From: Sphingomonadales bacterium Ga0077531
Lineage (GTDB): Bacteria > Pseudomonadota > Alphaproteobacteria > Sphingomonadales > Sphingomonadaceae
Length of the DNA stretch: 64,000 bases
Reading direction: 5' to 3'
Assembly: GCA_001464915.1 (NCBI GenBank)
Contig: LNED01000034.1
Span: 124,001-188,000, forward strand
The notes beneath the pieces are model-generated. The model worked only from the letters and a program-made list of their open reading frames with translations. It searched no databases and was not told the origin of the DNA. The translations under genes and the position numbers were made by a program. Shown here one piece after another: positions 3,976 through 31,342 of the stretch. Position 1 is the stretch's first letter; each line of letters starts with the position of its first letter.

Positions 3976-4051
<76 letters not shown>

Positions 4052-4123: not shown

Positions 4124-5050
4124 TCACCCAAGCTTGAGGAAAAATTCCTCGCGCTCGCGCCTTAATTCCGCTGGCGTCAGCGCTGCCAGCCCGTCCAGTT
4201 CGCTGCGTAGCGCCAGCGTCAGCCGCTTGACCATTTCGTCCGGATCGCGGTGCGCGCCGCCCTTGGGCTCGTAGACGATGCGGTGGATCACGCCCAGCTT
4301 CACCAAATCCGTCGCCGTCACCCGCATCGCTTCGGCCGCGTCCGGCGCCTGCGCGGCGCTGCGCCACAGGATTGACGCGCAGCCTTCGGGCGAGATCACC
4401 GAATAGACCGCGTGTTCGCACATCAGCACGCGGTTCGCCGCCGCCAGCGCGACAGCGCCGCCCGAACCACCTTCGCCGATGATCACCGCAATCAGCGGCA
4501 CACCAAGGCCAAGGCACGCCTCGGTCGAACGGGCGATGGCTTCGGCCTGTCCACGCGCTTCGGCATCGACGCCGGGGAAGGCGCCGGGGGTATCGACCAG
4601 CGTCACCACCGGCAGGCCGAAACGGTCGGCCAGTTCCATCATCCGGATCGCCTTGCGGTAACCTTCGGGCCGGGCCATGCCGAAATTGTGGTGGATGCGC
4701 GCGGTCGTATCCTCGCCCTTCACATGGCCGATCACCATAACCCGGCGGCCTTCGAACCGGGCGAAACCGCCGATGATAGCAGCGTCTTCACCGAACACGC
4801 GGTCGCCCGCCAGCGCCAGGAAGTCGGTGAACAGCCCCGCCACCAGTCGCTCGAACCGCGGACGCTGCGGATGGCGGGCCACCAGCGTGCGCTGCCACGG
4901 GGTGAGCCGCGCATAGGTGTCCGCCAACAAGCGATCGGCCCGCTCCGCTAGCATCCGCGCTTCCTCGGTGCCTTCGGGCAATGCGGATAGTTCGGCGACG
5001 TGCTTGTCGAGCGCCTCGATCGGCTTTTCGAACGGCAAGTACTGGATCAT
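4124..5050 (-). CDS. accA: Acetyl-CoA carboxylase carboxyltransferase subunit alpha
   Basis: A 308-residue protein that, with AccD, moves the carboxyl group from biotin-BCCP to acetyl-CoA to give malonyl-CoA. The crotonase-type carboxyltransferase core is present: GHVKGEDTTARIHHNFGMARPEG is split here as GHVKGEDT and NFGMARPEGYRKA, followed by LVDTPGAFPG, IGEGGSGGA and ISPEGCASILW. The length suits the family (about 315). The ATG at 5048-5050 has GAGG six bases upstream, overlapping the stop of mcr, and only 10 bases separate the two genes. AccA makes the substrate of Mcr, so this is a meaningful operon neighbour as well as a housekeeping gene of fatty acid synthesis. The other ACC subunits are not in the window. 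Confidence 0.97.
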   Translation of the reverse strand: MIQYLPFEKPIEALDKHVAELSALPEGTEEARMLAERADRLLADTYARLTPWQRTLVARHPQRPRFERLVAGLFTDFLALAGDRVFGEDAAIIGGFARFEGRRVMVIGHVKGEDTTARIHHNFGMARPEGYRKAIRMMELADRFGLPVVTLVDTPGAFPGVDAEARGQAEAIARSTEACLGLGVPLIAVIIGEGGSGGAVALAAANRVLMCEHAVYSVISPEGCASILWRSAAQAPDAAEAMRVTATDLVKLGVIHRIVYEPKGGAHRDPDEMVKRLTLALRSELDGLAALTPAELRREREEFFLKLG

Positions 5051-5060
5051 GCAGAGAGCC

Positions 5061-8000
5061 TCACACCGTCATCGACATGCCGCGATAGATTCGCGCGCGG
5101 TAGCGCGAATCCTCCGCGTCAGGCAGCGGCGCGCCAACCAGCAGCACCGCGCGGGCAAAGCGGCGGACTTCCTCCAGATGCTCGTCAAGATCGCGCGGTT
5201 CTTCCGATTGCACCCGGCGGGTCAGGTTGATCTGGTTGACCGGCACATCATGCACCAGCCGCTCGTTTTCGACCGCTAAGGTGGCCGTGAACGCGTGGAG
5301 CGTGGTCTTGATGAAGTTCGCCAGCGCAAACGCCGGGCTGCGGTCTCCCATCGGCACATCGGGCGATGTCAGCACCAACTGGCAATCATCATAAAGCGAT
5401 GCGCGCCGCGCGATGCGGAAATGGTGGGTGAGGTTGTCGGCCACCACTTGTCGGAATTCGGTCGGGGTGAGCGGATCGGCGGCATCGAACAGCTTGCCCG
5501 GCAGCGCGGCGAACGGGGTGGAGAGGATCGTGGTCGGCTTGCCCCATTGCACGATCGCCGCGTCCATCGCCGCCTCGACATCGTCTCCCGCCACCAGAGA
5601 GGTCAGCGCATTAGCCGTGTCGCCTTCCAGCTGCGCCTTGATCGCTGCAAAGCCTTCGCCTGTGCGGCTGATCAGAACCACGCGGGCGACATGGCAATCC
5701 TCGATGAAAGCGCGCGCGGTTTCGGCGAGGTAATCCACCAGATGCTCGCCGATGATCCATACGGTCTTGCCGCGCATCTGGTCGAGCCGTTCCTGCTTGG
5801 GACTGCCGAACAGCTCGCGCTCGGTGGTGGAGCGTTCCACGGAGAGCCCGCCTGAAGGCATGAAGGTTTCGCCCGAAACGGCGCGGTCGGCGAGGAAGAA
5901 CACCGTCGCCTGCGCCACATCAATCTCGGTCGGCATCTTGCCGAGGTAGAGTTTGGACAGCACCCCACTGCCAACCTTCTTGGCCTCTACCGCGATTTTG
6001 TCGGCGGGCAGGAAGGGGGTGCCCTCCGGCGGCGCACGCATCAGCCAGTCGGCGTCAGCCTCAGGCGTGGCGGGGCGATCAGCCCATTCGGGCGCGTCGA
6101 GGAAATAACCGCCCTGCCGCAGCCGCCCGATCAACGCAGCGGCGATTGTCGGGGTCAGCAGGTATTGATCCCAGGTGCACTCCCCGTCGCCTTCGCGTGC
6201 GCAGGCCAGCGCCAACTCGCGCAATTCGTGCGGGTTGTTGGTGTCGTGGCTCATCTTGACGGTATCGTTGCGCGCCAGCCGTGCCAGCAGCGCCTCAACC
6301 CGCACCCCGCGCCGCAGCGCCTTGATGCTGGCGGCGTGAACCGCGTTCAGGCGTTTGTTTTCAAGGATCAGCTTACCGCGCCGCTCGAACAACCCCGGCT
6401 TGCCGCCGGTGCCCGACAGGCGGTCGCCATCGACCGGGCCGGGCGCAATCGCATTGAACTGCACTTCGGGGCCGAGATAGCGGGCCATGCTTTCGACCAT
6501 CGCTCGCTGCCCGGATTTGCTGACGGCGTAATCGGCGCGGTTGGGATAGGCGACCGCGAGGTATTTCTCGCCGCCGAAGTAGGACGAGACGTTGAGGATG
6601 TAGCCCGAGCCCTGCGCTTTCATCAGCGGGGCGACGTGGTGCATCAGGAAGTAATTCGACACCAGGTTCGCATCGAGCGTGTAGTTCCAGGCGTCGACCC
6701 CCATGTCGACCACCATATCCTCCGCGCCTGCAACGCCCGCGTTGTTGATGAGGTAATCGATCCGCCCGAAGGCCTTGAGCGTCGCATCAACCGCGCCTTT
6801 GAGGCTGTCGAAATTGCTGACATCAACATTGGCAAGCGTCTGTACACGGCGCTCGACCCCGGAAAAGCCGATGTCTTCCAGCTCGGAAACGATCCGCGCG
6901 CGTGCCACCGCGAGTTCGCTTTCGCGGCGGGCGACCATCATCACCTTGCCGCCTGCCAGCGCAAGCAGTCGCGCGACCTGACCGCCAATCCCGGCCGAAC
7001 CCCCGGTGATCAGCGCCACCTTGCCAAGGTGCAATCCGGTGATGTTTTCGGAGAACCCCGGCATCGCCTTGCGCGCGCCCGTCGCCTCACCAATGTTGCC
7101 GGGGACGTAGAGTGTGATTTCACCGAGCTTGCTTTCTTTCAGCAAAATCCGCGCGGCGTGACCGGCGGTGAAGCGAATGTTTTCCGCCTCGGTATTGGTG
7201 AAGCGCACGATCTGATTGCCCCACTCGGCCTGACGGCGGCGGCCATGCGCGGTGTCGATCGCGGATTCGTCGCGCCAGATGCGGATCAGCTGTTCGGTCG
7301 CCGCGCGCAGGATGTGGGCGTAGATATCGCCCTTGCCGTCGCTCGCATGGCTGACGAACACAAAACGCGGCGGTTGCAGCAGGTTGTCGTGGCGCTTCCA
7401 ATAGCGGCTCATGGTGCGAGCCAGCGCCATGCTACCCGCCAGTTCGGCGTCCATCAGCGCCTCGATCACGCTGTCGTCTGCCTCGGTCAGCGCGCCGGTC
7501 AGCTCGCCCGCGCCAAGCATCGGCAGGAACAATGCGCCGCTGATCGGCGTGCCGCCTTTGCTGTAATCCTCCAGCGCGACCTCCATCGCGGCGGGGTCTT
7601 TGCGGTTGAAGCGGATGATGGTGAGATCACCTTCAACCCCCATCGCCTTGCAGCGCTTTTCGGCGATGGCCACATCAGCCTGACGCGGCAGGCCGAGCAC
7701 GACGGCAGCTCCGCAGGCCAGCTGCACCTGCGCGATTTCGAGCGCCTCTTCGAAGTTGTCACCCGCTGCGATCAGCACGGCGAGCCCGGTGCCGTCCATC
7801 GAGCGCATGGTGGGCCGCGCCAGATAGGTCGCGCGCTCTTCCTTGCGCACGGTCATACCGTGGGTGACTTCGAAATCGTGGCCATTGTAAGCGGCGGATT
7901 CGTCGCTGCCGAGGAACACGCAGGTGGTGGCAATGTCGGTGGGTGTCGGGAACGTCTTGGCCTTGGCATTGCCGCCGGTCGCGCGTTCCAGACTCATCAT

Positions 8001-8744
8001 GTCGAAGAATTGGCTCGCCGTAGTGCCTGCCGCGTCTCCGCGTGCGGTATCCATCGTGGCGAACACGGTGCGGATGCGTTCGCTTTCAATCGGGCCGGGG
8101 TAGACGAGGTTGACGCGGATGCCGCGTCCGCCGAGTTCGAGCGAGAGTTCGCGGCTCCACGCGTTCATCGCAGCCTTGGGGACGACATAGGCGGCGCGTG
8201 CGTAGTATGGCGTGCGGCTGAAGATGGTCGACACGTTGATGATCGACCCGCCTTCGGGGATATGCGGCGCAGCGGCGCGGGCGACGTTGAAGGCGACGCC
8301 AAAGATATTGCGCAGCGCATCGCCCACGGTTTCGCTGTCGGTGCTGCCCTTTTTTTGGAGCGCGGCGAGTTCCTCGGCGGAGAGCGGCAGGTTCTCAATC
8401 GGCTGCTTCGGCCCGGCGCTTCCGGCGTTGTTCACCAGAATGTCGATCCGCCCGAACTTGGCGACCACTTCGGCCATCGCGGCGCGGACCGATGCAATGT
8501 CGCCGCCATCGAGCGCCACGGTGGCGAGGCGTGCAGGATCGGCCCCGGTTGCCTTGAGCAGCGCATCAGCCGCCGCTTGCGTGCGGTCAGGCGTGCGGCC
8601 CGTCATCACGACCGTGGCCCCTTCGGCCAGATAGTGCGTGACGATATGCCCGCCCAGATTGCCCGCTGCGCCGGTGACGACAGCGATCTTGCCCGCCAGA
8701 CGGCCGGTGGTGGTTTCTGCGGACACAGCTTTCAGTTTGGCCAC
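5061..8744 (-). CDS. mcr: Bifunctional NADPH-dependent malonyl-CoA reductase
   Basis: A 1227-residue fusion of the Chloroflexus type (about 1220). The N-terminal half has a canonical SDR domain with TGAAGNLGGH near residue 24, VNNAG near 104 and catalytic Y186-x3-K190. It is followed by a degenerate SDR-like part (about 320-560). The C-terminal half has GGSAGIGG at 581-588, INNAG at 666-670, S720 and Y739-x3-K743, then a second degenerate SDR-like part from about 980. In the known enzymes the C-terminal half reduces malonyl-CoA to malonate semialdehyde and the N-terminal half reduces that to 3-hydroxypropionate, using NADPH. The GTG start is supported by AGGAGAG eight bases upstream. It lies between pcs (106-base gap) and accA (10-base gap), all on one strand. 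Confidence 0.95.
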   Translation of the reverse strand: MAKLKAVSAETTTGRLAGKIAVVTGAAGNLGGHIVTHYLAEGATVVMTGRTPDRTQAAADALLKATGADPARLATVALDGGDIASVRAAMAEVVAKFGRIDILVNNAGSAGPKQPIENLPLSAEELAALQKKGSTDSETVGDALRNIFGVAFNVARAAAPHIPEGGSIINVSTIFSRTPYYARAAYVVPKAAMNAWSRELSLELGGRGIRVNLVYPGPIESERIRTVFATMDTARGDAAGTTASQFFDMMSLERATGGNAKAKTFPTPTDIATTCVFLGSDESAAYNGHDFEVTHGMTVRKEERATYLARPTMRSMDGTGLAVLIAAGDNFEEALEIAQVQLACGAAVVLGLPRQADVAIAEKRCKAMGVEGDLTIIRFNRKDPAAMEVALEDYSKGGTPISGALFLPMLGAGELTGALTEADDSVIEALMDAELAGSMALARTMSRYWKRHDNLLQPPRFVFVSHASDGKGDIYAHILRAATEQLIRIWRDESAIDTAHGRRRQAEWGNQIVRFTNTEAENIRFTAGHAARILLKESKLGEITLYVPGNIGEATGARKAMPGFSENITGLHLGKVALITGGSAGIGGQVARLLALAGGKVMMVARRESELAVARARIVSELEDIGFSGVERRVQTLANVDVSNFDSLKGAVDATLKAFGRIDYLINNAGVAGAEDMVVDMGVDAWNYTLDANLVSNYFLMHHVAPLMKAQGSGYILNVSSYFGGEKYLAVAYPNRADYAVSKSGQRAMVESMARYLGPEVQFNAIAPGPVDGDRLSGTGGKPGLFERRGKLILENKRLNAVHAASIKALRRGVRVEALLARLARNDTVKMSHDTNNPHELRELALACAREGDGECTWDQYLLTPTIAAALIGRLRQGGYFLDAPEWADRPATPEADADWLMRAPPEGTPFLPADKIAVEAKKVGSGVLSKLYLGKMPTEIDVAQATVFFLADRAVSGETFMPSGGLSVERSTTERELFGSPKQERLDQMRGKTVWIIGEHLVDYLAETARAFIEDCHVARVVLISRTGEGFAAIKAQLEGDTANALTSLVAGDDVEAAMDAAIVQWGKPTTILSTPFAALPGKLFDAADPLTPTEFRQVVADNLTHHFRIARRASLYDDCQLVLTSPDVPMGDRSPAFALANFIKTTLHAFTATLAVENERLVHDVPVNQINLTRRVQSEEPRDLDEHLEEVRRFARAVLLVGAPLPDAEDSRYRARIYRGMSMTV

Positions 8745-8850
8745 GAAGCACTCTCCTCATAAAATTACATTACAAGCGCCGCTGGCTTGCTGGATCGTTC
8801 AATCTCTGGGGAGGAGAGCGAAGAACGTTTCAATTATTGCAACGCGCGGG

Positions 8851-11800
8851 TCAACCGTCCGGTTCCCCGGAGCCTTGTGCCGCCCCCAAGGCAGCCCACG
8901 CCTCAAGCAGCGCATCGCGGCTGCGCAGGCCCATTTCGGGCAGCGCGTGGTTGACGACATAGGTCGATCCGGTGTGCCGGTTCTCCCACATCGCCTGATG
9001 CGCTTCGGGCAAGCCGTCCCACGGCACCACTTCCGGCTCGGTCACTTCGAGCAGCCCGGCCGCGATCATGTCGTTCATCCGCGCGACTTCGTAGGCGTTG
9101 CACAGGTGCGTGCCGAGGATGCTGGCGGTCGGCATCAGGATCTTGCGTTGCCGCGTCCACACCTGCGGGGCGTAGAAGGTGAAGCGGCAGCCGGTCAGAT
9201 CCTCGGCAAAGATCACGCGGCCCGTGAAGGGCTTCACCAGCGAGGTCGAAATGCCCAGCGTGTCCTGCTCGGCCCGCTCGAACACCAGATCGGGGCTGCC
9301 GCGCGGGTTATCGGGGGAGCGCAGGATCTTGCCCACCGCCGAACCGAAGGGTTTCATCACCCGGTCCTGATAATCGCGCACGGCCGCCTTGAAGACCTCG
9401 ATATCCGTCTTGGCATCGGGCAGGCGCGGCATGGTGTCGGGCCAGTAGAAATTCGCCCCTTCGCGCCGCCGGATTGCTTCGAGGCTGACGATACCCTCGA
9501 TCGCGTCTTCAAGGCCGAGCGATTGCAGAAATTCGCGCTGGCCGTCGGTGGTGGTGGCGATCACGCTGCGCGCGTTGAAACGGCGTGCGGCTTCGATCAT
9601 TTCGAGCCCGGTTTCGTCGAGCAGTTCGGACGATCCGGGGCCGTAGAAAATCAGCACCGCTTCCCCGCCGCGCAGGGCCGCACGGCGGAGCATTTCTTCG
9701 GGCGAGGCTGTTCCCGGCTTGCCCATGAAGCTGAAATGGTAGCCTGATGATGCGCCGTAAAACGCCAGCGTGCCGTTCTCGGCGAGCAATTGGAACGAGC
9801 GCGGAAAGGCCGTCTCGCCCGCGTGGCTGACGACATAATCGGCGAGCTTGCCGCCGTTGAGCGCTTTGTATTCCTCTACCAGCGGCGCGCCTGCGGCTTC
9901 CCACTTCTGCGCCTCGGCCTTGTCCTCCGGCACCACCGAATAGAGGCCAGCAAAGCGCGCATCCTTGCGGTTGATCGCGCCCACTGCGCCCTGCACCCCG
10001 GTGATGAAGCTGGCGCGCTCCTCCGATGACACCAGCCCCGTCACCTGCAAGCCTGTGCGCACCGAAGACCGCAGGGCATCAAGCCCCGTACCCGTCGCCG
10101 CGCCTTCGACAAACAGCGTACGTCCCGGTGCGATTTGCAAGGTCGTGAACAGGCAGCGCGCTATCGTACCGAGGTTCAGCACATAGCTCCCCGCCTGCTC
10201 CAGCGTCAAATCGGGCGGCAATTTGTGCATCTGCGGCGCCTGCACGGTCAGGAACTGCGCGTGGCTGCCAGTCTCGGTCTCGTAACCCTGAATGCTGAAA
10301 TCGGCATACATCGGGTCGTTGCCGACCAGCGGGCTGAGCAGGTCATTGGTGCCCGAATAGACCGTCACCAGATCGCCGACCTTGATTCGGCCCTGCGCGC
10401 GGGTTTCACTACCCAAAGCCGCGACCAGCGCGATACCGCCCGAGCCGGTAATCTGGACGTCTTCCTCGTGACTGTCGAACGGCGAGACCGGGATGCCGGT
10501 CAGCGCCCAGATGTCGTTGAAGTTGACCTCGCTGGTCAGCATGTACAGCAGCGCTTCGTTGGGCGCGGGCTCGGGCACCTTGACGATCAGCTCCTTTTCG
10601 TGGCTCGCCGGTGGGCCAAAGCGCGGCGCGCCGGTGTCGGGATCGCGGGCGATGCCGAAGGCGTATTGGTGGCCGGGAATCGGGGTGACGCCGGGGAAGA
10701 ACGGCGCGCCGACGGGCAGCAGATCACCCGCCGCCTCCAAGGCCTGCGCGCGCATTTCGTGTTCTGCGTCGATCCACACCCCATCACGCCGGACGGGGAG
10801 CGGCGGGGCGACCTTGTCCATGAATTGGCGAATGCCGGTCTTGCCGCCTTCGGGATCGACAATAGCATCGGCGAACAGCGCGGCTTCTTTGGCGAGACCC
10901 GCAGTGATGCCCTGTTCGAGGCCAACGCGCACCGCTTCCAGCGCCCGCTTGCCAGCGGCTCCGCGCCCGGCCCAATCGAGCTGACGCAAGATGCGCTGGA
11001 GGAAATCATCCTCCATGACACTGTCGAGGCTGACGTCCGCCGCCGTGTCCCACCGCTCCGCCGCCGCCTGCCGCTCGGCAAAGGCTGCGCCGAGAGGACT
11101 GTCCTCACCGTGCTTCACATAGTCGCGCACAGTCGCATGAGCAGCCGAAAGCGCGTCAGCCGCGCCGCCCACCAGCTCGTCGATGAAACCGACGGCTTCC
11201 GCTGCGTCCGCATCGATGCTCCGCCCACCCAGAATGAGGTCGAGCGCATCGCGCAGGCCTTCGTCCCCGCGCCGATCCAGCAACAATCGCGGCAGCCGCT
11301 GCGTCCCACCATAGCCGGGCAGTAGTCGCAGGCGGATCTCGGGCTGGCCGAAACGCGCTGTGGGTTCCGCAATCCGGTAATGGCACGCGAGCGCGAATTC
11401 CATCCCCCCGCCCAGCGCCACGCCCTGCACCGCCGCGATGCACGGCTTACCCATGCGTTCAATCGTGCGGAAGGCGAGGTGCGCGTTGTTGGGCAGCACT
11501 AACGCTTCTTCGCGCGTGTGGATTTCCTCCAACATCTGGCGAATATCCGCGCCTGCCACGAAAGACGAAGTGCCCTCGCCCGTGAACACCACCGCCACGA
11601 CATTATCGTCGCGCGCCAGCGCCGATGTCACCATCACCAGCTCGTCAATCGCGCGTTCGTTCAGCGCGTTGACCGGCGGGTTGGTGACGGTGACGGTCGC
11701 CACCTGCTTGCCGGGGGCAACCGTGTTGTATTGCACGAGGAAATAGCGGTGCCGATCAAACAACGCCTGTTCGTCCGACAGGCGCTGTTTGCGCTGCCAA

Positions 11801-14343
11801 TCGGCGATCACGGTACGCAGCTCGTCCAACGCCTCGGGATTGCGCAGGGTGGTGACGTCGCCGACATCCTCCCCCACCACCAAAGCGCGCACCATGCGGC
11901 GCATATATTTGCCGCTGCGGGTTTCGGGGAACTGCGAAACCTCGATGAAATCCGCCGGCACCGCGACCGCCCCCTTTTCGGTGCGGACGAGATCGAACAG
12001 GCGACGCTTGTCCTCGATCGTCAGCTTGCGGCCCGCGACCGGCACCACAAACGCCAGCGGGGTCAGCCCCTTCTCGCGGTGCGGCGCGCCGACCACCAGC
12101 ACATTGCCAACCGGGCTGTCGGGCGCGAGCGCCTTGTCGCGCAGCACCGCGCCTTCGATTTCCTCGGTCCCCATGCGGTGGCCCGATACGTTGATGACAT
12201 CATCGCTGCGCCCGTGGAGCGAGAACGAACCGTCTTCATGCGCAATCGCAAAGTCGCCTTGGGTGTAGGCCCAAGCGCCCTTCCAGCGCCGCCAGTAACC
12301 ATCCTCCCACCGCGCCGCATCGCCGCGCCATGCGGGGTCTACCCGGCCATCGGTGACCTTAAAGCCCTCGATATCGCCCCAGATGGTGCGCGCGAGATAG
12401 GGGTAAGGTGCGGCGATCACGATTTCGCCCTTCTCGCCCATCTCTGCCCGCCGCCAGTTGACGCCGCCTGAGTCACCGCGTGCAAATGGCACTGAACCGG
12501 GTGCGCCTGCATCCTCGTCCTCAACCCAAACATCGCCGACGATCCACGGCAGCGGATAGGCATGCGCATCGGGGCGCAGCGGAAAATCGTCGTTGCCGAA
12601 CATATGCGTCCACGCGATCCCGCCGTGTTCGGTCGCCCAGTATGAATTGATGTAGCGCGGGGTGATATGCTCCATCCCGAAGGCCTGCACCGACGGCGAC
12701 ACCGGCTCAGCGCAGAAGGTCGCGACCCGCAGCCCGCTCATGTCATAACGTTCGAGTTCGGCAAGGTTCGCCGGATCGGACATGATCGCTTTCAGGAAGG
12801 TCACGCCCGCCTTGAAGATGCGGACATTGTGCCGCTCGATCATTGAGGCAAAGCGCCCCGCGTGCGGGAACACCGGCGATCCTTCGGAAACCAACGTGGT
12901 CACCCGCGTCATCAACGGCGCGCAGATCAGGTAGCTTTGTCCGGTGATCCAGCCGGGATCGGCAACCACGAACAAAGTATCGCCCGGCTGCGCATCGAAC
13001 GAAACCTTCATCGTCTCGGCAATGCCCGCGGCATAGCCGTGCGCGTGGACGATCCCTTTGGGCTTGCCGGTGCTGCCCGAGGTGTAGATGAAAAACATCG
13101 GGTAATCGGCATCGACCGGCAGCGGCTTGGACGAGGCCCAGATCGCACGGACGAAATCTGTATCGGGCAGCGCAAGCAGATCGGCTTCGGTGGCGACATT
13201 GAAGCCTGCGCCGCGCGCTTTCTCCAGCACAGTCACCAGCGCCGCATCGGTTAACTCATGGCTCCAACGATCGCGTTCTTCGCGCCAGATCACGTCGGGC
13301 TGCGCGGTGTGGCGGCACACGATCACCGCTTCCACACGCGGCGGCAAAGTGACGAGGCTGGAGGCAATCGCGATCCGCACGCGAGCAGCGTCGGCGGTGC
13401 TGATCCGGCCTTCCGCACCGAGGTTAATCAGCGCTCGGCCAACGCCGCGCATCACATCCGAACGGTCTACCGTGATTTCGCCAGACAGCGCCTCACGGAC
13501 AGTCTCGACAATCGTTGCGGCATCGGCAGACGGCAGGCCCATGTCCAGGCCGGAGAGAATATCCAGCGCGGTCGTCACCGGCACAAAATTGTCGAGCGCC
13601 GGGTCGGTATAGGCGTTCTTGAACGCGGCGACCTGCGCATTGCGGTAGCTGCCGTCAGACGTGACGATCACCCGCGCGCCCGTATCGGCGATGCGGTCAG
13701 ACAGCGTCTTGTCGGAAAAGCCACCGAACACAGCGGTATAGACCACGCCCATCCGCTTGGCCGCTTCGGTCCAGTAAATCTGCGGCACGATGCTCGGCAT
13801 GTTCAAGGCCATGCGGTCGCCTGGTTTCAGCCCCAATGCCTCCAGCGCGACGGCGCATTTGGCCACTTCCAGCAGCAATTGCTTGCGGCTAACCGTGAAA
13901 CAATCGAGCGGCGCGCCCTTGCCGCCATTCGCCGACATGTCCCAGCGGTCGCCTTCGAAAACGAGCGCGGCTTCATCGCCGTGGCCGGTCAGCACATGGC
14001 GGTCGAGTTCGCTGAAGGCGGCATTGGTGCGTCCACCCACAAACCAGCGCCAATGCGGCGCGGCGCTGCCATCGAAGCCGGTGTGCCACGGGGCGAAATT
14101 GGCGGGCAGATCGGGCGTTATCGGCGCAGCTGTCGCAGCGTCCCAGCCGTGCCAGTGGCCGTCTTCACCCTTGGCCAGCCAAGAGCCTTCTGCTCCGACA
14201 TCGGCCACAAACCAGTGCATGTTGCGTGCAGCAATATCGCCGTGAAACGCGCCGGGATCAGCCAGCGCAGCGGCGCGCATCGCGTCCCATTCAGCGCGAG
14301 TTCGCACAGGATTGATCCGGGCAGCACCGCTGCTCGCACGCAA
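8851..14343 (-). CDS. pcs: Trifunctional propionyl-CoA synthase
   Basis: An 1830-residue fusion that turns 3-hydroxypropionate into propionyl-CoA using ATP, CoA and NADPH. Domain 1 (about 1-850) is an acyl-CoA synthetase with TSGSTGKPKG at 421-430, GRSDDVINVSGHR at 711-723 and adenylation Lys812 (RSGKYMRR). Domain 2 (about 865-1180) is an enoyl-CoA hydratase with catalytic glutamates E982 (GGGME) and E1002 (FGQPE). Domain 3 (about 1210-1815) is a crotonyl-CoA-reductase-like MDR domain. In the characterised Erythrobacter enzyme a closed chamber holds the reactive acrylyl-CoA. The longest frame starts at TTG 14343 with no good ribosome site; a GTG at codon 13 is an alternative. Length and domain order match Chloroflexus Pcs. 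It is the first gene of the pcs-mcr-accA block. Confidence 0.95.
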   Translation of the reverse strand: MRASSGAARINPVRTRAEWDAMRAAALADPGAFHGDIAARNMHWFVADVGAEGSWLAKGEDGHWHGWDAATAAPITPDLPANFAPWHTGFDGSAAPHWRWFVGGRTNAAFSELDRHVLTGHGDEAALVFEGDRWDMSANGGKGAPLDCFTVSRKQLLLEVAKCAVALEALGLKPGDRMALNMPSIVPQIYWTEAAKRMGVVYTAVFGGFSDKTLSDRIADTGARVIVTSDGSYRNAQVAAFKNAYTDPALDNFVPVTTALDILSGLDMGLPSADAATIVETVREALSGEITVDRSDVMRGVGRALINLGAEGRISTADAARVRIAIASSLVTLPPRVEAVIVCRHTAQPDVIWREERDRWSHELTDAALVTVLEKARGAGFNVATEADLLALPDTDFVRAIWASSKPLPVDADYPMFFIYTSGSTGKPKGIVHAHGYAAGIAETMKVSFDAQPGDTLFVVADPGWITGQSYLICAPLMTRVTTLVSEGSPVFPHAGRFASMIERHNVRIFKAGVTFLKAIMSDPANLAELERYDMSGLRVATFCAEPVSPSVQAFGMEHITPRYINSYWATEHGGIAWTHMFGNDDFPLRPDAHAYPLPWIVGDVWVEDEDAGAPGSVPFARGDSGGVNWRRAEMGEKGEIVIAAPYPYLARTIWGDIEGFKVTDGRVDPAWRGDAARWEDGYWRRWKGAWAYTQGDFAIAHEDGSFSLHGRSDDVINVSGHRMGTEEIEGAVLRDKALAPDSPVGNVLVVGAPHREKGLTPLAFVVPVAGRKLTIEDKRRLFDLVRTEKGAVAVPADFIEVSQFPETRSGKYMRRMVRALVVGEDVGDVTTLRNPEALDELRTVIADWQRKQRLSDEQALFDRHRYFLVQYNTVAPGKQVATVTVTNPPVNALNERAIDELVMVTSALARDDNVVAVVFTGEGTSSFVAGADIRQMLEEIHTREEALVLPNNAHLAFRTIERMGKPCIAAVQGVALGGGMEFALACHYRIAEPTARFGQPEIRLRLLPGYGGTQRLPRLLLDRRGDEGLRDALDLILGGRSIDADAAEAVGFIDELVGGAADALSAAHATVRDYVKHGEDSPLGAAFAERQAAAERWDTAADVSLDSVMEDDFLQRILRQLDWAGRGAAGKRALEAVRVGLEQGITAGLAKEAALFADAIVDPEGGKTGIRQFMDKVAPPLPVRRDGVWIDAEHEMRAQALEAAGDLLPVGAPFFPGVTPIPGHQYAFGIARDPDTGAPRFGPPASHEKELIVKVPEPAPNEALLYMLTSEVNFNDIWALTGIPVSPFDSHEEDVQITGSGGIALVAALGSETRAQGRIKVGDLVTVYSGTNDLLSPLVGNDPMYADFSIQGYETETGSHAQFLTVQAPQMHKLPPDLTLEQAGSYVLNLGTIARCLFTTLQIAPGRTLFVEGAATGTGLDALRSSVRTGLQVTGLVSSEERASFITGVQGAVGAINRKDARFAGLYSVVPEDKAEAQKWEAAGAPLVEEYKALNGGKLADYVVSHAGETAFPRSFQLLAENGTLAFYGASSGYHFSFMGKPGTASPEEMLRRAALRGGEAVLIFYGPGSSELLDETGLEMIEAARRFNARSVIATTTDGQREFLQSLGLEDAIEGIVSLEAIRRREGANFYWPDTMPRLPDAKTDIEVFKAAVRDYQDRVMKPFGSAVGKILRSPDNPRGSPDLVFERAEQDTLGISTSLVKPFTGRVIFAEDLTGCRFTFYAPQVWTRQRKILMPTASILGTHLCNAYEVARMNDMIAAGLLEVTEPEVVPWDGLPEAHQAMWENRHTGSTYVVNHALPEMGLRSRDALLEAWAALGAAQGSGEPDG

Positions 14344-14661
14344 GGAATTCTCAGGAATGGCGCGTCCCCCGATATTTGCAGCAATGCGCAGCGCGTGATC
14401 CCTGACGCCCGGCGGTTATGCAGCATAATTACACAGCACGCCGCCAATCAGCAAGAAAATGCCAAAGGCAGCGTGTGTTGCAGTAACGCGAACATCGCCA
14501 AAGCGTTCCGTGCATTTTTCACATCACCCGCCCCCGGAGCGTGCCGTAACGTTTTTTCAATCCCGTTGGTTCTATGACAAAAGTGTTGGGGTGGATTGCA
14601 CGTGCACTGCGGGTGCAGGCCAAACGCGTTGGCATGGCCGCCCCGAAGACAAGGACAAGCA
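14344..14661. other. 318-base gap between divergent pcs and the c-di-GMP enzyme gene
   Basis: This gap must hold the promoters of both divergent genes. I see one short perfect palindrome (listed separately) and no recognisable sigma-70 pair that I would defend. No open frame with a ribosome site lies in it; the longer frames that cross it are shadows of pcs. Confidence 0.6.
14416..14428. promoter_or_regulatory. Interrupted palindrome upstream of pcs, candidate operator
   Basis: TTATGCAGCATAA is a perfect two-arm palindrome (TTATGC and GCATAA around a central A). It lies about 75 bases upstream of the pcs start and about 235 bases upstream of the divergent PAS-GGDEF-EAL gene. Its AT content differs from the surroundings. 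A regulator cannot be named from sequence. Confidence 0.35.
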
Positions 14662-16857
14662 GTGCCACTGGGCTTTCTCAGATCAGTACGTGACCAAACT
14701 GCGCAGGCCCGCACGCCCGCTCCCGATGCTGCGCCGCCAGCTCCGGCGCCGCGGCCCGAGCGCGTGGCTGTGCTGAGCGAGGTTGAACAGCTGGGCGTAG
14801 GCATGTTCTGGGCCACCGATGCGCTGGGCAATTTGTCGTTCTTGTCGCAGCGCGCATTGCAGGATCTGGAAACGGATGGCGGCGACCTGCTCGGCAAGCC
14901 GCTGGTGCAGGTCTTCAGCGATATCGACAGCGAGCCGGGCGCGCCGACGCAGCGATCGCTGTCCTTCAAGCTCAAGGCGCACTCGAAACTGGAAGAGCAG
15001 ATCGTCGCTTTGACAAGCGCGCGCGGCACCACCCGCTGGTGGCGGCTGAATGGTCGCCCGCTGATCGATGCCAAGGGCGAATTCATGGGCTATCGCGGTA
15101 GCGCGGTCGATATTTCGGGGCAGTATATCTACGATACGCAGGTGGCGCGGCAATCGGCGGTCGATGAACTGACCGGGCTGGCCAATCGCCGCAAGCTGGG
15201 TGAACGGCTGACCGCAATGCTGGGTGCGTTCCGGGTCAGCAAGCGCAGCTGCGCACTGATGATGCTCGATCTTGACCGGTTCAAGCAGGTCAATGACACG
15301 ATGGGCCACCCGGCAGGCGACGAATTGCTCAAACAGGTGGCGCAGCGGCTGACTGCGATCGTCAAGGATCGCGGCGAAGTCGGCCGGCTGGGCGGCGATG
15401 AATTTCAGGTGCTGCTGCCTGACATGGACGATCGCGGCACGCTGGGCGAGCTGGCCAACCGGATCGTACAATCGGTGTCGCAGCCCTACACCATCAACGG
15501 TCGCCGGGCCATTATCGGCACGTCGGTCGGCATCGCCATCGCGCCCTATGACGGGCTGGACACTGACGAGTTAACCCGCGCGGCCGACATGGCGCTGTAT
15601 TCGGCCAAGGATACACGCGGCGGCACATTCTGCTTTTTCACCAGCGACTTGCGCGATGCTGCATCGAAAACCGCGATGCTGGGCGAACGACTGCGCGACG
15701 CGGTGGACCGCGATGAGCTCAGCCTTGTCTATCAGCCGTTGGTTGATCCTGAAACCAACGTGGTCAAATGCTTTGAAGCATTGCTGCGCTGGAATGATCC
15801 GGAAGAAGGCAGCATCTCGCCCGCGTTGTTCATCCCTGTCGCCGAAAGTGATGATCTGATCATCCGGATCGGCGAAACGGCGCTGCGGCGCGCGTGCTTC
15901 GACGCGCTGGACTGGCCCGAAACGATCCGGGTTGCGGTCAATGTCTCGGCCAAACAGTTCACCCGGCCTGGATTCCACAAGACGGTGGCTGCCGCGCTCG
16001 AATCGTCAGGCCTGTCGCCTGGCCGGCTTGAACTGGAAATCACCGAAAGCGTGTTCGTGGGCGATCTAGAATCGGTCGATGCGATCTTCGGCGATCTGAA
16101 AAAGCTCGGCGTGCGGCTGGCGCTGGACGATTTCGGCACCGGCTATTCATCTCTGGGCTATCTCAAGGGCGGCCATTTCAAAAAGTTGAAGATCGATCAG
16201 AGCTTTGTGCGCGGCTGCACCGAAAACGGGGACATCAACCCGGCGATCATCAGCGCGATTGTCGCACTGGCAAAAGCGCTGGGGATGGAAACCGTCGCCG
16301 AAGGGGTTGAGGCGATGGACGAGCTGGCGCTGGTGCGCGAACGCGGCGCCGATCTGGTGCAGGGCTACATCTATTCGCGCCCGCTCACCCAGGAAGCTCT
16401 GTTGCCACAGTTTGCCGATGGAACGATGAAGGTCACGCCCGAAGGCCCAGCGCGCCACCGCGCCGAACGCATTTCGATGTACCGCAAGGTCGGGTTGATC
16501 CACGAAGATCACTATTACGACGTGATCATGCGCAACCTTTCCAAAACCGGCGCGCGGATCAATGGGTTGGGCGGTGTGCCGATCGGGACCGACGTAGTGC
16601 TCGATCTCGGGCACGGGCAGCTGGTGGTCAGCAAGGTGGTCAACGCATCCGAAAGCAGTCAGGGGCTGAAGTTCGAAACCGCGCTAATCAGCGATGGCGG
16701 CGGCGGGTTCATGACCCGGCACCGGATTTCGCCTTACTCGCTGGCCGAAGCGGGCATTCCGCTGGCGGCGCTTGGTGCAGGCGCGTTCCCGCTGGCGAAG
16801 TGGCGCGATGCCAACAAGGGCCTGCCGCGCTTCATCCAGCTTGATATCGGGATTTAG
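14662..16857 (+). CDS. PAS-GGDEF-EAL-PilZ cyclic di-GMP enzyme and sensor
   Basis: A 731-residue cytoplasmic protein with no membrane segment. A proline/alanine-rich start is followed by a PAS-like domain (about 35-160), a GGDEF domain with intact GGDEF at 244-248, an EAL domain with E372-A-L and the catalytic D489-D490 in DDFGTGYSS, and a PilZ-like domain (about 600-700, NLSKTGARI). Both cyclase and phosphodiesterase signatures are intact (NVSAKQF, EITES, VAEGVE). No RxxD inhibitory site sits five residues before GGDEF, so product inhibition may be absent. The GTG start at 14662 has AAGGA six bases upstream; a longer frame from 14596 has no such support. PilZ may report c-di-GMP to the enzyme itself. 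The gene is divergent from pcs. Confidence 0.92.
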   Translation: MPLGFLRSVRDQTAQARTPAPDAAPPAPAPRPERVAVLSEVEQLGVGMFWATDALGNLSFLSQRALQDLETDGGDLLGKPLVQVFSDIDSEPGAPTQRSLSFKLKAHSKLEEQIVALTSARGTTRWWRLNGRPLIDAKGEFMGYRGSAVDISGQYIYDTQVARQSAVDELTGLANRRKLGERLTAMLGAFRVSKRSCALMMLDLDRFKQVNDTMGHPAGDELLKQVAQRLTAIVKDRGEVGRLGGDEFQVLLPDMDDRGTLGELANRIVQSVSQPYTINGRRAIIGTSVGIAIAPYDGLDTDELTRAADMALYSAKDTRGGTFCFFTSDLRDAASKTAMLGERLRDAVDRDELSLVYQPLVDPETNVVKCFEALLRWNDPEEGSISPALFIPVAESDDLIIRIGETALRRACFDALDWPETIRVAVNVSAKQFTRPGFHKTVAAALESSGLSPGRLELEITESVFVGDLESVDAIFGDLKKLGVRLALDDFGTGYSSLGYLKGGHFKKLKIDQSFVRGCTENGDINPAIISAIVALAKALGMETVAEGVEAMDELALVRERGADLVQGYIYSRPLTQEALLPQFADGTMKVTPEGPARHRAERISMYRKVGLIHEDHYYDVIMRNLSKTGARINGLGGVPIGTDVVLDLGHGQLVVSKVVNASESSQGLKFETALISDGGGGFMTRHRISPYSLAEAGIPLAALGAGAFPLAKWRDANKGLPRFIQLDIGI

Positions 16858-29080: not shown

Positions 29081-31042
29081 TCAAAAACGCGCTTCCACGC
29101 CCACCACTGCCGAGCGGCCCGGTGAGACGAAGCTGAACACCTGTTCGTATCGCTGATCGAGCAGGTTTTCGACGCGTGCGAAGGCATTGATCCCCTCCGC
29201 CAGCCGCGCCCGCGCGTTGACGTTCACCAGCGTGTAATCGCCCAACGTCACCCGCACCGGGATAAAGCTGGGATCGATGAAGGCGACATCGGGCGTCGCG
29301 CCATTGTGGCGCACCACCAGCGTCGCCGATGCGGCATCCCCCGGCGCGGCCCATGTCAGCGCGGCGCTGGCGATGTGCTGCGGGCGGCGAACTTCCTCCA
29401 CGCCGTTCTCCTCGGCATCAAGGTAGCTATACGCCGCATCAAGGCTCCATTGCTCGGCCAGCTTGGCAGTGAGCGACACTTCGACCCCGCGTTGTTGGCT
29501 TTCCGTGGTGCGGTTGGCCGGGGTGGCGATGAAGTTCGGCGGCGGGAAAGTGGTGAAAATCTCGCCTTCCAGCGTGCTGTCGAAATAGATCACGGAAAGG
29601 AGTGTGGTATCGCCCAATTCCTGATCCACGCCGACTTCCCACCCGGTCGATTTTTCTGGGCGCAAAGCCTCGTTACCGATGAATTGCCCGCTGACGAAGC
29701 CGTACAGCTCGAAGAAGCCGGGGTTCTTAACCCCCGATCCCGCCGCAGCGCGCAACCGGGTTGAGTCGGTTACAGGATAGCCCGCGCCAACGCGGAAGGT
29801 GGTCGCATCACGGAACCGGTCGTTCAGGTCATGCCGCAGCGCTGCCGACAGGTCGAATGCCTCGCCGGAATAGCGATATTCGCCGACGAAGCCGACCTGC
29901 TCGACCGCCCGCCGCCCAGTGAACCCGCCGCTGGCAGCGAGCGCATTGCGGAAACTTTCGCGCTCATAATCAGCGGCGAAGGTCACATTGTGATCGTCAG
30001 CGATCCGCAAGGCGGTGACGTAGGATGCCTTGACCCGGTCGCCCTCGCTCGCCGAAGTGAGGCCGAAGGGACTTTCGGTTTCCCGATCAATTTCGGCGAC
30101 CTGCGCCGAGAGGTCATGCGTCCAGCGCCCTTCCAGCACTTCAGCCCGCGCGCCGACCAGCGCGTAGACCGCCTCGTTGACATAGCCCACGCCGGGGCTG
30201 TCGATGGTGAAGCCGAAGGTCGGGCTGGCGGGGTCGAAATCACTGTCGTTGAATTGGCCCTCGGTGCGGATGAAGCGGGCGGCTGCACGCAGGGCAAGAC
30301 CCTCGGCCAGCTCAACGTTGCCTTTGCCCGAGAGCGTATAGCTGTCGCGGCCAACTTCACGGGTGCCATTCTGGGCGTTGGGCTGGCCGTCTGTGCTGAC
30401 CACCGTGGCGCTGAGCGCCGCGTCCCAACTATCACCCGCCGCGCCGTAACGCAGCGCGCCGTTGATGGTGCTGTCCGTCCCGCCTTCGATCCGCGCCGCA
30501 AAGCCCGGCACAGCGCGCCCGCTGGCGCTTTCGTAAGCGATCACCCCGCCGATTGCGTCCGGCCCGTACAGCGCCGATTGCGGCCCGCGCAGCACTTCGA
30601 CCCGCGCGCCGACTTCGGCCTGCAAGGTGCCAACGTCGAATTCACCCGCGAAGGGATCGGAGACTTCGATCCCATCGACCAGCACCAGCACGTGATTGCC
30701 TTCGGAGCCACGCAGACGGATCTGGGTTTGGCCTGGGATGCCCGCCACCGCCACGCCGGGCACGTCGCGCAGCACATCGGCGATGTCGCGGGTCTGGCGG
30801 GCCTCGAGCTGCTGCGCGGTGATGACCAGCGCCGATCCAGTGAAGTCCTCACGCAACAATGAGGCATCGCGGCTTGCGGAAACGAGGATGTCCTTGCCAG
30901 GGTAGCAAAGCAGGCTTTCGCTGACCTCATCGCCTGTCACATAGCATTGACCCGGCGTCTTGCCGTCTTCCTGCGCCATCACCGGCACAGCCCAAACCAG
31001 CGCCGCCCCAGCGACGCTGCTCAACAATACAAAATTTCTCAC
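29081..31042 (-). CDS. btuB: TonB-dependent outer-membrane receptor, probable vitamin B12 transporter
   Basis: A 653-residue outer-membrane protein with a signal peptide (FVLLSSVAGAALVWAVPVMAQ region) and a TonB-box-like ILVSASR. The plug domain has ITAQQLEARQTRDIADVLRDVPG and the beta barrel ends in an aromatic residue (GVEARF). Length and plug sequence suit BtuB. The decisive context is a cobalamin riboswitch in its leader (31160-31342), which normally controls B12 uptake or B12-independent genes. It would import cobalamin with TonB energy. No btuFCD genes lie next to it. Confidence 0.88.
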   Translation of the reverse strand: MRNFVLLSSVAGAALVWAVPVMAQEDGKTPGQCYVTGDEVSESLLCYPGKDILVSASRDASLLREDFTGSALVITAQQLEARQTRDIADVLRDVPGVAVAGIPGQTQIRLRGSEGNHVLVLVDGIEVSDPFAGEFDVGTLQAEVGARVEVLRGPQSALYGPDAIGGVIAYESASGRAVPGFAARIEGGTDSTINGALRYGAAGDSWDAALSATVVSTDGQPNAQNGTREVGRDSYTLSGKGNVELAEGLALRAAARFIRTEGQFNDSDFDPASPTFGFTIDSPGVGYVNEAVYALVGARAEVLEGRWTHDLSAQVAEIDRETESPFGLTSASEGDRVKASYVTALRIADDHNVTFAADYERESFRNALAASGGFTGRRAVEQVGFVGEYRYSGEAFDLSAALRHDLNDRFRDATTFRVGAGYPVTDSTRLRAAAGSGVKNPGFFELYGFVSGQFIGNEALRPEKSTGWEVGVDQELGDTTLLSVIYFDSTLEGEIFTTFPPPNFIATPANRTTESQQRGVEVSLTAKLAEQWSLDAAYSYLDAEENGVEEVRRPQHIASAALTWAAPGDAASATLVVRHNGATPDVAFIDPSFIPVRVTLGDYTLVNVNARARLAEGINAFARVENLLDQRYEQVFSFVSPGRSAVVGVEARF

Positions 31043-31159
31043 GGATTCCTCCCGTTATCAGCAACATGGTGGCCGCGAGGCACCTGCCTCACGACCCAAC
31101 GATGTCGCTCACAACGAAGGTTTTCCGCGCCTGACCAATCCCTGAGCCAAGCAAAGAGC

Positions 31160-31342
31160 GACACGCCCCGGTCGGTCTCCTGGCTCACGGATCAACATAT
31201 CCGGCGCTCACCTTCCCAGAGCGTTGCCGCTCCAGTGGCTGCCCCGCTGAAGGGGCGCACACCGCATACTCACCGCTTACAGTTGCAGGGACAGCTGCGG
31301 ATTTGAACCGCATTCCCGTTACCTTGGCGCTTCTTGGTGTTA
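31160..31342 (-). ncRNA. Cobalamin (AdoCbl) riboswitch
   Basis: On the minus strand the leader of the receptor gene carries the core elements of the cobalamin riboswitch in order: GGGAATGCGGT, the loop with GCTGTCCCTGCAACTGTAAG, GCCACTGG, then GGGAAGG, and the B12 box AGCCAGGAGACCGACC (31170-31185). The last matches the B12-box consensus at nearly every position. High B12 should shut down the downstream gene. About 117 bases between the aptamer and the ATG remain for the expression platform. The limits given are approximate. Confidence 0.93.

What the first reader, a model, noticed from the sequence alone, without database searches (positions are those of the whole stretch)
4124..14343. accA-mcr-pcs block: the reductive half of the 3-hydroxypropionate cycle in a proteobacterium
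Three co-directional genes encode acetyl-CoA carboxylase alpha, bifunctional malonyl-CoA reductase (1227 aa) and trifunctional propionyl-CoA synthase (about 1830 aa). Together they would run acetyl-CoA to malonyl-CoA to 3-hydroxypropionate to propionyl-CoA, consuming bicarbonate, ATP and NADPH. All catalytic signatures I checked are intact. The two fused enzymes are known from Chloroflexus and from Erythrobacter and Porphyrobacter strains, so the enzymes are described; their physiological role in these mostly heterotrophic or photoheterotrophic bacteria is less clear. They could refix bicarbonate, dispose of excess reductant, or co-assimilate 3-hydroxypropionate.
Basis: partly seen in the sequence, partly recalled or inferred. 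Interest (0 to 1): 0.85.

Follow-up and report, generated by a model that had tools for sequence, protein, structure and literature searches.

The report
CO2-fixing operon tied to phototrophy
Three neighbouring genes encode enzymes that turn acetyl-CoA plus bicarbonate into propionyl-CoA, and in the near-complete genomes surveyed from this bacterium's family they occur only in species that also carry a photosynthetic reaction centre, which suggests a light-fuelled carbon add-on rather than full autotrophy.

Summary
In detail: pcs, mcr and accA lie head to tail on the minus strand, intact and under purifying selection. The enzymes are known, relatives are solved, and Erythrobacter dokdonensis has the same block. 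What I add: (1) Pcs occurs in 41 of 397 genomes of the family; at completeness 90% or more, 36 of 36 Pcs carriers have a type II reaction centre against 36 of 324 non-carriers. The link holds inside six mixed genera (exact stratified P 6e-6). Mcr was found in 0 of 78 Pcs-negative genomes. (2) The block's accA is a second accA of a distinct group inherited with pcs-mcr; in three near-complete relatives it is the only accA, so it works as a carboxyltransferase subunit. (3) A general-stress (EcfG-type) promoter motif precedes pcs in 24 of 25 Erythrobacteraceae loci; pcs may start at a conserved ATT codon (unsettled). (4) The genome encodes propionyl-CoA carboxylase, epimerase and mutase, but no RuBisCO, Ccr or clear malyl-CoA lyase was found, so the route most likely runs acetyl-CoA to succinyl-CoA, not a full bicycle. 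Function, light coupling and regulation are inferred; nothing was measured here.

The parts
8851..14358 (-). pcs, trifunctional propionyl-CoA synthase; possible start ATT at 14358 (the ORF list gives TTG at 14343)
14365..14370 (-). GGGGGA, possible ribosome binding site, 6 nt before the ATT
14485..14509 (-). GGAAC-N16-CGTT, EcfG-type (general stress sigma factor) promoter motif upstream of pcs, present in 24 of 25 Erythrobacteraceae loci tested
   Evidence: consensus GGAAC-N16-17-C/GGTT quoted in PMC12148442
8841..8866 (-). second GGAAC-N17-CGTT, overlapping the pcs stop codon, about 120 nt before mcr
   Evidence: 18 of 24 Erythrobacteraceae loci; GGAAC lies in Pcs codons, so part of its conservation may be protein-driven
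5061..8744 (-). mcr, bifunctional malonyl-CoA reductase
4124..5050 (-). accA-b (my name), second acetyl-CoA carboxylase carboxyltransferase alpha subunit
3976..4051 (+). tRNA-Thr(TGT) next to the accA end of the block; a tRNA-Thr(TGT) lies within 2.7 kb of accA in 10 of 25 other Erythrobacteraceae loci searched
14596..16857 (+). divergent GGDEF/EAL protein; relatives flank the block in 21 other Erythrobacteraceae loci

Best explanation
The block is one co-directional unit that runs the reductive half of the 3-hydroxypropionate bicycle: acetyl-CoA + HCO3- to malonyl-CoA (ACC with the AccA-b subunit, probably sharing the cell's AccD), to 3-hydroxypropionate (Mcr, 2 NADPH), to propionyl-CoA (Pcs, ATP to AMP, 1 NADPH). 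Chromosomal propionyl-CoA carboxylase, epimerase and B12-dependent mutase then give succinyl-CoA, so one acetyl-CoA takes up two bicarbonates. In these aerobic anoxygenic phototrophs I think it is a light-fuelled add-on to heterotrophy: ATP and reductant made or spared by the photosystem are spent on fixing bicarbonate onto acetyl-CoA, which both refills the TCA cycle and disposes of excess reductant. In Erythrobacteraceae it is probably switched by the stress/starvation sigma factor EcfG. Shown: genes, intactness, selection, co-occurrence, genes for the rest of the route, motif conservation. Inferred: flux, direction, regulation, AccD sharing, light coupling.
For: Pcs in 41 of 397 family genomes, Photo_RC over cut-off in 76 of 397; at completeness >=90% the table is 36 both, 36 Photo_RC only, 0 Pcs only, 288 neither; Fisher P 9e-30, and 6e-6 stratified over six mixed genera. 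In the five Pcs carriers assembled in one contig, pcs and the reaction-centre genes lie at least 0.44 Mb apart in four and 79 kb apart in one (coordinates), so tight linkage is not the cause. In a second, named set (50 of the 80 relatives returned, family members included) 46 of 50 have Photo_RC; of the 17 whose titles place them outside Sphingomonadaceae and Erythrobacteraceae, 15 of 17. Mcr follows pcs in 95 of 96 loci with room and is found in 0 of 78 Pcs-negative genomes. Own genome: PccB- and PccA-like proteins, epimerase and mutase over cut-off. Mutase in 77 of 79 genomes, 39 of 41 Pcs carriers. Ccr over cut-off in 0 of 79, RuBisCO in 2 of 79, not G000. Median dN/dS 0.126 (accA-b), 0.093 (mcr), 0.091 (pcs), 20 loci each. 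EcfG motif in 24 of 25 Erythrobacteraceae loci, 1 of 77 others, 0 of 102 in reverse, 0.16 expected over all. In Porphyrobacter sp. ULC335 bicycle genes are up by day (PMC10674011, abstract, passages and section 17 read).
Against: 36 of 72 near-complete phototrophs of the family lack pcs, so phototrophy does not need it. ICL-family genes are in 40 of 41 Pcs carriers, so a replenishing route seems to exist already. G219 (99% complete, Pcs+) has no mutase hit. 4 of 50 named Pcs genomes had no Photo_RC: three MAGs (L126, L129, L191) and the Aneurinibacillus danicus genome (L196). 3 of 41 family carriers had none either (67, 76, 88% complete). PMC12148442 says the E. litoralis DSM 8509 stress response seems dark-activated, at odds with a day-time rise. 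EcfG was not looked for in this genome. Species are not independent; stratifying by genus corrects only in part.
Confidence: 0.6

Rival explanations
1. Co-assimilation of external 3-hydroxypropionate or acrylate: Pcs is the working enzyme and Mcr is incidental.
For: Aneurinibacillus danicus (L196), in which no Photo_RC was found, has an open pcs (59% identical, AGGAGG before ATG) and no mcr on its 10.9-kb contig. Pcs alone would suffice for this role.
Against: Mcr sits next to Pcs in 95 of 96 loci, is under purifying selection, and by its known reaction has no use in 3HP uptake. The reaction-centre link is not predicted.
Confidence: 0.15
2. A plain replenishing route for acetate, fatty acids or leucine, in place of the glyoxylate shunt or ethylmalonyl-CoA pathway, with no special tie to light.
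For: Genes for acetyl-CoA to succinyl-CoA are there; Ccr over cut-off in 0 of 79 genomes.
Against: ICL-family genes in 344 of 397 genomes and 40 of 41 Pcs carriers, including G000 (family matches only, activity unknown); the 36 of 36 restriction to phototrophs is not predicted.
Confidence: 0.13
3. Supply of propionyl-CoA itself for odd-chain fatty acids or polyhydroxyalkanoate, or a pure reductant valve, rather than carbon gain.
For: G219 (99% complete) has the block and no mutase hit.
Against: 39 of 41 Pcs carriers have the mutase. PHA and lipid genes were not examined.
Confidence: 0.07
4. A full autotrophic 3-hydroxypropionate bicycle.
For: PMC9802188 (passages read) proposes it for some Burkholderiales MAGs.
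Against: The only HpcH_HpaI match of the genome is CitE-like (best PDB match 6aq4, 128 bits; malyl-CoA lyases 5ugr 102 and 4l9y 90 bits; below every NCBIfam cut-off listed). PMC10674011 says ULC335 lacks a full fixation pathway. The other second-cycle genes were not searched.
Confidence: 0.02
5. accA-b is a passenger with no role in the block.
For: 44 of 90 blocks with room have no accA behind mcr, so the other two enzymes can do without it.
Against: Its copies form a group of their own (45 of 46 block rows plus one row from the fragmentary Pcs+ genome G022; support 99/93) apart from the host copies, reaching another order (Aerophototrophica); it lies within 60 bp of mcr in 44 of 46 loci; dN/dS is 0.13 although the genome has a second accA.
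Confidence: 0.15

Closest known systems
pcs-mcr-accA locus of Erythrobacter (Porphyrobacter) dokdonensis DSW-74 (L151), probably the source organism of Mcr structures 6k8s/6k8v
   Same: Same three genes and order, GGDEF/EAL and queF on the pcs side; tblastn identity 91, 91 and 86%
   Different: pcs has ATG where this window has ATT
pcs-mcr of Erythrobacter sp. NAP1 (L161); that 6eqo is from NAP1 is recalled
   Same: Same two fused enzymes, adjacent; EcfG-type motif upstream of pcs
   Different: Another branch of the Pcs tree (69% Pcs, 61% Mcr), no accA behind mcr, none of this window's flanking genes matched
3-hydroxypropionate bicycle of Chloroflexus aurantiacus (steps recalled)
   Same: Same first half (ACC, Mcr, Pcs, then carboxylase, epimerase, mutase)
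   Different: No malyl-CoA lyase candidate found for the second half
Ethylmalonyl-CoA pathway CO2 fixation in the photoheterotroph Dinoroseobacter shibae (title seen in the reference list of PMC10674011)
   Same: A photoheterotroph fixing CO2 onto acetyl units
   Different: Uses Ccr, over cut-off in 0 of 79 genomes tested here

Membership tests
Bifunctional malonyl-CoA reductase | Four-SDR chain of about 1220 aa aligning end to end with solved Mcr | tested here: met
   Residues 12-1227 on 8hi4 (1229 aa); 6k8v and 6k8s cover the halves
Bifunctional malonyl-CoA reductase | Catalytic Thr/Tyr/Lys in SDR1 and Ser/Tyr/Arg/Tyr/Lys plus Arg in SDR3 | tested here: met
   Read off against positions named in PMC10470521; Arg1164 not covered
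Bifunctional malonyl-CoA reductase | NADPH-dependent malonyl-CoA to 3HP activity | not testable with these tools
   -
Trifunctional propionyl-CoA synthase | Acyl-CoA synthetase + enoyl-CoA hydratase + enoyl-CoA reductase in one chain | tested here: met
   Pfam parts in order; 16-1822 on 6eqo
Trifunctional propionyl-CoA synthase | Catalytic motifs invariant among relatives | tested here: met
   12-row alignment A1; residue roles recalled
Acetyl-CoA carboxylase alpha subunit (AccA) | Above equivalog cut-offs; able to serve as the only AccA of a cell | tested here: met
   the block copy is the only accA match at E<=1e-60 in G030, G113, G219 (99-100% complete drafts)
Complete 3-hydroxypropionate bicycle | Malyl-CoA/beta-methylmalyl-CoA/citramalyl-CoA lyase | tested here: not met
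   One HpcH_HpaI match, CitE-like
Complete 3-hydroxypropionate bicycle | Mesaconyl-CoA transferase, hydratases, malate CoA-transferase | not tested
EcfG (general stress response) regulon | GGAAC-N16-17-CGTT in gene orientation, conserved | tested here: met
   24 of 25 Erythrobacteraceae pcs loci
EcfG (general stress response) regulon | EcfG-dependent transcription | not testable with these tools
   The ecfG gene itself was also not searched in G000
Genes with an AUU start codon (infC, pcnB; recalled) | AUU at the initiation site behind a Shine-Dalgarno, conserved | tested here: inconclusive
   ATT in 17 and ATG in 6 of 23 readable loci of the clade, but 16 of the 17 ATT loci and 0 of 6 ATG loci have an NTG five codons on, which could be the start instead

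The most novel reading that the evidence does not exclude
pcs-mcr(-accA-b) is a dedicated photosynthetic electron and ATP sink of aerobic anoxygenic phototrophs, kept almost only in cells with a reaction centre. In Erythrobacteraceae its dose is set twice over: by the general stress sigma factor (EcfG-type promoters before pcs and before mcr) and by a conserved AUU start codon on pcs that ties its synthesis to initiation-factor balance, while AccA-b redirects the shared AccD, and so malonyl-CoA, from lipid synthesis to carbon fixation when growth stops but light continues.
Probability: 0.22. Interest if true: 0.85.

Novelty: new variant of a known kind. Interest (0 to 1): 0.62.

Why it matters
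How much CO2 aerobic anoxygenic phototrophs fix, and by what route, bears on aquatic carbon budgets. A gene set confined, in this survey, to phototrophs and missing from their non-phototrophic genus mates is a ready marker and a clean deletion target. The block accA is a natural case of a second carboxyltransferase subunit that travels with a pathway, and the motif and start codon make its regulation testable.

Tried and rejected
Full bicycle: not supported, no malyl-CoA lyase candidate. Stand-in for the glyoxylate shunt: not supported, ICL-family genes are in 344 of 397 genomes (the ICL match of G000 was not examined further). Ccr or RuBisCO as the substitute in reaction-centre carriers without pcs: 0 of 38 and 0 of 38. 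Tight linkage to the photosynthesis genes: not in 4 of 5 one-contig genomes. Terminators: 11 matches against 8.9 in shuffles. Sigma-70 promoters: 6 matches against 1.5 in shuffles, none on the minus strand in front of pcs, mcr or accA. Residues telling AccA-b from AccA: one column (window position 54, R against K) at 90% in each group (L062 and L220 left out). Structure prediction was not used, since close solved relatives exist.

Rows dropped before counts: 12 loci repeating another locus's pcs; 7 loci with under 1.5 kb behind pcs, for the mcr count; 2 of 104 loci without 250 nt upstream; short AccA rows and Pcs under 1600 aa (101 rows used). 80 of 400 relatives were returned and 50 of those 80 tested for Photo_RC. 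G118's Photo_RC hit below cut-off was not counted. In L125 the Mcr match begins at residue 440 and in L154 the gap is 728 bp, so two of the 95 pcs-mcr neighbours may be damaged or misread; in L163 the mcr-accA gap came out at -927, taken as an error of my start picking.

Full report
What is there. On the minus strand lie pcs (8851-14343, or to 14358 if the ATT start is right), mcr (5061-8744) and accA (4124-5050), all open. Pfam and NCBIfam show a synthetase/enoyl-CoA hydratase/reductase fusion, a tandem SDR protein and an AccA. Mcr aligns with solved bifunctional enzymes over its whole length and Pcs with 6eqo. Residues that PMC10470521 (passages read) names as catalytic in Roseiflexus Mcr are kept, except Arg1164, which the printed alignment did not reach. 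Pairwise dN/dS against 20 loci of the clade has medians 0.126 (accA), 0.093 (mcr) and 0.091 (pcs), so all three are under selection as proteins.

Where it comes from. The window is G000:C34:124001-188000 of a 2.84-Mb, 98% complete genome. The nearest Pcs is from Porphyrobacter sp. AAP60 by tree path; the most identical (95%) is the Porphyrobacter MAG L136. The block of E. dokdonensis DSW-74 is 91, 91 and 86% identical (Pcs, Mcr, AccA). On the pcs side the GGDEF/EAL gene is shared by 21 other loci of the clade; L127 lacks it but has queF close by. On the accA side, rarA and/or its neighbour were matched in 9 loci and a tRNA-Thr(TGT) found in 10; in the rest the 3 kb or less at hand did not show them. 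NAP1 carries a different version without accA and without these flanks.

Operon coherence. In 95 of 96 distinct loci with room, mcr follows pcs on the same strand, 93 of the 95 with gaps of -4 to 151 bp; the exception is Aneurinibacillus danicus. accA follows in 46 of 90 loci with room, 44 of them within 60 bp. Mcr was sought in 78 Pcs-negative genomes of the family (38 with reaction centre, 40 without) and found in none; both positive controls were found.

The accA is a second one. The genome has another accA on contig C13, 65% identical. Among six reaction-centre carriers of this genus, the three with Pcs have two accA and the three without have one. In a maximum-likelihood tree of 97 AccA, 45 of 46 block copies plus one row from the fragmentary Pcs+ genome G022 form one group (99/93) apart from the host copies; L062's block copy falls outside (the root is only a midpoint). 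The group includes Aerophototrophica, of another order. In G030, G113 and G219 (99-100% complete) the block copy is the only accA found, so it should serve fatty acid synthesis there. I call it AccA-b. One AccD-sized carboxyltransferase gene is seen in G000 (C37, 301 aa; named AccD by size and by lying next to trpA), so I infer that both alpha subunits share one beta subunit.

Reaction centre link. Pcs was found in 41 of 397 genomes of the family, the reaction-centre family over cut-off in 76 of 397. 38 of 41 Pcs carriers have it; the other three are 67, 76 and 88% complete. At completeness 90% or more there are 36 genomes with both, 36 with reaction centre only, none with Pcs only, 288 with neither (Fisher P 9e-30). 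In six genera that vary, every Pcs carrier at that completeness is a reaction-centre carrier (g1 3 of 3, g21 9 of 9, g63 2 of 2, g68 1 of 1, g74 2 of 2, g95 2 of 2), exact stratified P 5.8e-6 (membership read from the rows listed; unlisted genomes can only belong to neither). Species are treated as independent, which is too optimistic. In a second, named set, 50 of the 80 returned relatives were tested, family members included: 46 have a reaction centre. Of 17 whose titles lie outside Sphingomonadaceae and Erythrobacteraceae, 15 do, among them Burkholderiales, Gammaproteobacteria, a Rhodopila and a Gemmatimonas MAG. The four misses are L126, L129, L191 (MAGs) and Aneurinibacillus danicus.

Completion of the route. 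On contig C13 lie a PccB-like carboxyltransferase, methylmalonyl-CoA mutase and epimerase over their cut-offs, BioB, and some 8 kb away a PccA-like biotin carboxylase/carrier protein (the Pcc names rest on similarity below the curated cut-offs). The mutase is in 77 of 79 genomes searched (41 Pcs carriers and 38 other reaction-centre carriers), missing in G219 and the incomplete G267. A cobalamin riboswitch stands before a TonB receptor in the window. RuBisCO is in 2 of these 79 and Ccr over cut-off in 0. The single HpcH_HpaI match is CitE-like. By established biochemistry (recalled), acetyl-CoA plus two bicarbonates gives succinyl-CoA for three NADPH and three ATP-consuming steps.

Regulation. 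In the 20 aligned upstream regions of the clade, GGAAC and CGTT are kept while the 16 bases between them vary. The strict motif is present in 24 of 25 Erythrobacteraceae loci and 1 of 77 others, none in reverse, 0.16 expected over all 102 from shuffles. This is the EcfG consensus quoted in PMC12148442 (passages read); PMC6599016 gives GGAAC-N17-20-GTT for Sphingomonas melonis (passages read). NAP1, with a distant version of the block, has it; the uncultured Erythrobacter L157 does not. A second copy precedes mcr in 18 of 24 Erythrobacteraceae loci with mcr, but its first half lies in Pcs codons. In the window as a whole two such sites are no more than chance (0.96 expected); the weight rests on conservation. 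PMC12148442 says the stress response of E. litoralis DSM 8509 seems dark-activated, whereas PMC10674011 reports a day-time rise of bicycle genes in ULC335: the two do not fit simply.

Start codon. 23 loci of the clade can be read: 17 have ATT and 6 ATG at the same place behind a G-rich site, all 25 codons long to the conserved W(D/E). For ATT: only ATT and ATG are seen there, though the genes are diverged at synonymous sites (median dS about 0.67). Against: 16 of 17 ATT loci have an NTG five codons on (8 CTG, 5 TTG, 2 ATG, 1 GTG; L141 has CTT) and none of the ATG loci does, so a start there, though 21 or so bases from the G-rich site, is possible. AUU starts are rare and regulated in infC (recalled; one search gave only a listing).

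What is in print. PMC10674011 already reports key bicycle enzymes in Porphyrobacter ULC335 and NAP1, suggests CO2 co-assimilation, and reports the day-time rise. PMC11089705 and PMC9802188 (passages read) report partial or proposed bicycles in phototrophic proteobacteria. I saw no report of the reaction-centre restriction, the AccA-b group, the EcfG motif or the ATT start in the listings; these cover open-access papers only. Four key papers (Zarzycki 2009, Zarzycki and Fuchs 2011, Hauruseu 2012, Fiebig 2019) were not held.

Changes made on checking: the EcfG, tRNA and reaction-centre counts were recounted, and the ATT start was marked as unsettled; the odds of the boldest reading went from 0.25 to 0.22 for that reason.

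Noticed in passing
L196:2225-7669: Aneurinibacillus danicus (Bacillota; no Photo_RC found) has an open pcs, 59% identical, with AGGAGG before ATG and no mcr on the 10.9-kb contig: perhaps a 3-hydroxypropionate assimilation enzyme. Flanking ORFs, judged by eye only, look like uracil-DNA glycosylases and a permease.
   Followed up: partly
window 31153-31341 (-): Cobalamin riboswitch upstream of a TonB-dependent receptor (29081-31042), perhaps a B12 importer; the mutase that would finish the route needs B12.
   Followed up: partly
window 3976-4051 (+): tRNA-Thr(TGT) directly beside the accA end of the block: a possible old integration site. The empty site in Pcs-negative genus mates was not examined.
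   Followed up: partly
G219 (L079): A 2.2-Mb, 99% complete reaction-centre carrier with the block, its only accA inside it, and no methylmalonyl-CoA mutase hit: propionyl-CoA must go elsewhere.
   Followed up: no
G140:C1:3789352-3790275, G317:C1:1149544-1150467: Two Pcs-positive genomes of the family also carry RuBisCO large-subunit genes; in G140 it lies about 15 kb from pcs.
   Followed up: no
window 14546-14562 (-): A further stretch (GATTGAAAAAACGTTAC here) between pcs and the divergent GGDEF/EAL gene is conserved in the clade; function unknown.
   Followed up: no
L125 (Sphingomonas psychrolutea): The Mcr match starts at residue 440, 1150 bp after pcs: mcr may be frameshifted or damaged in this assembly.
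   Followed up: no
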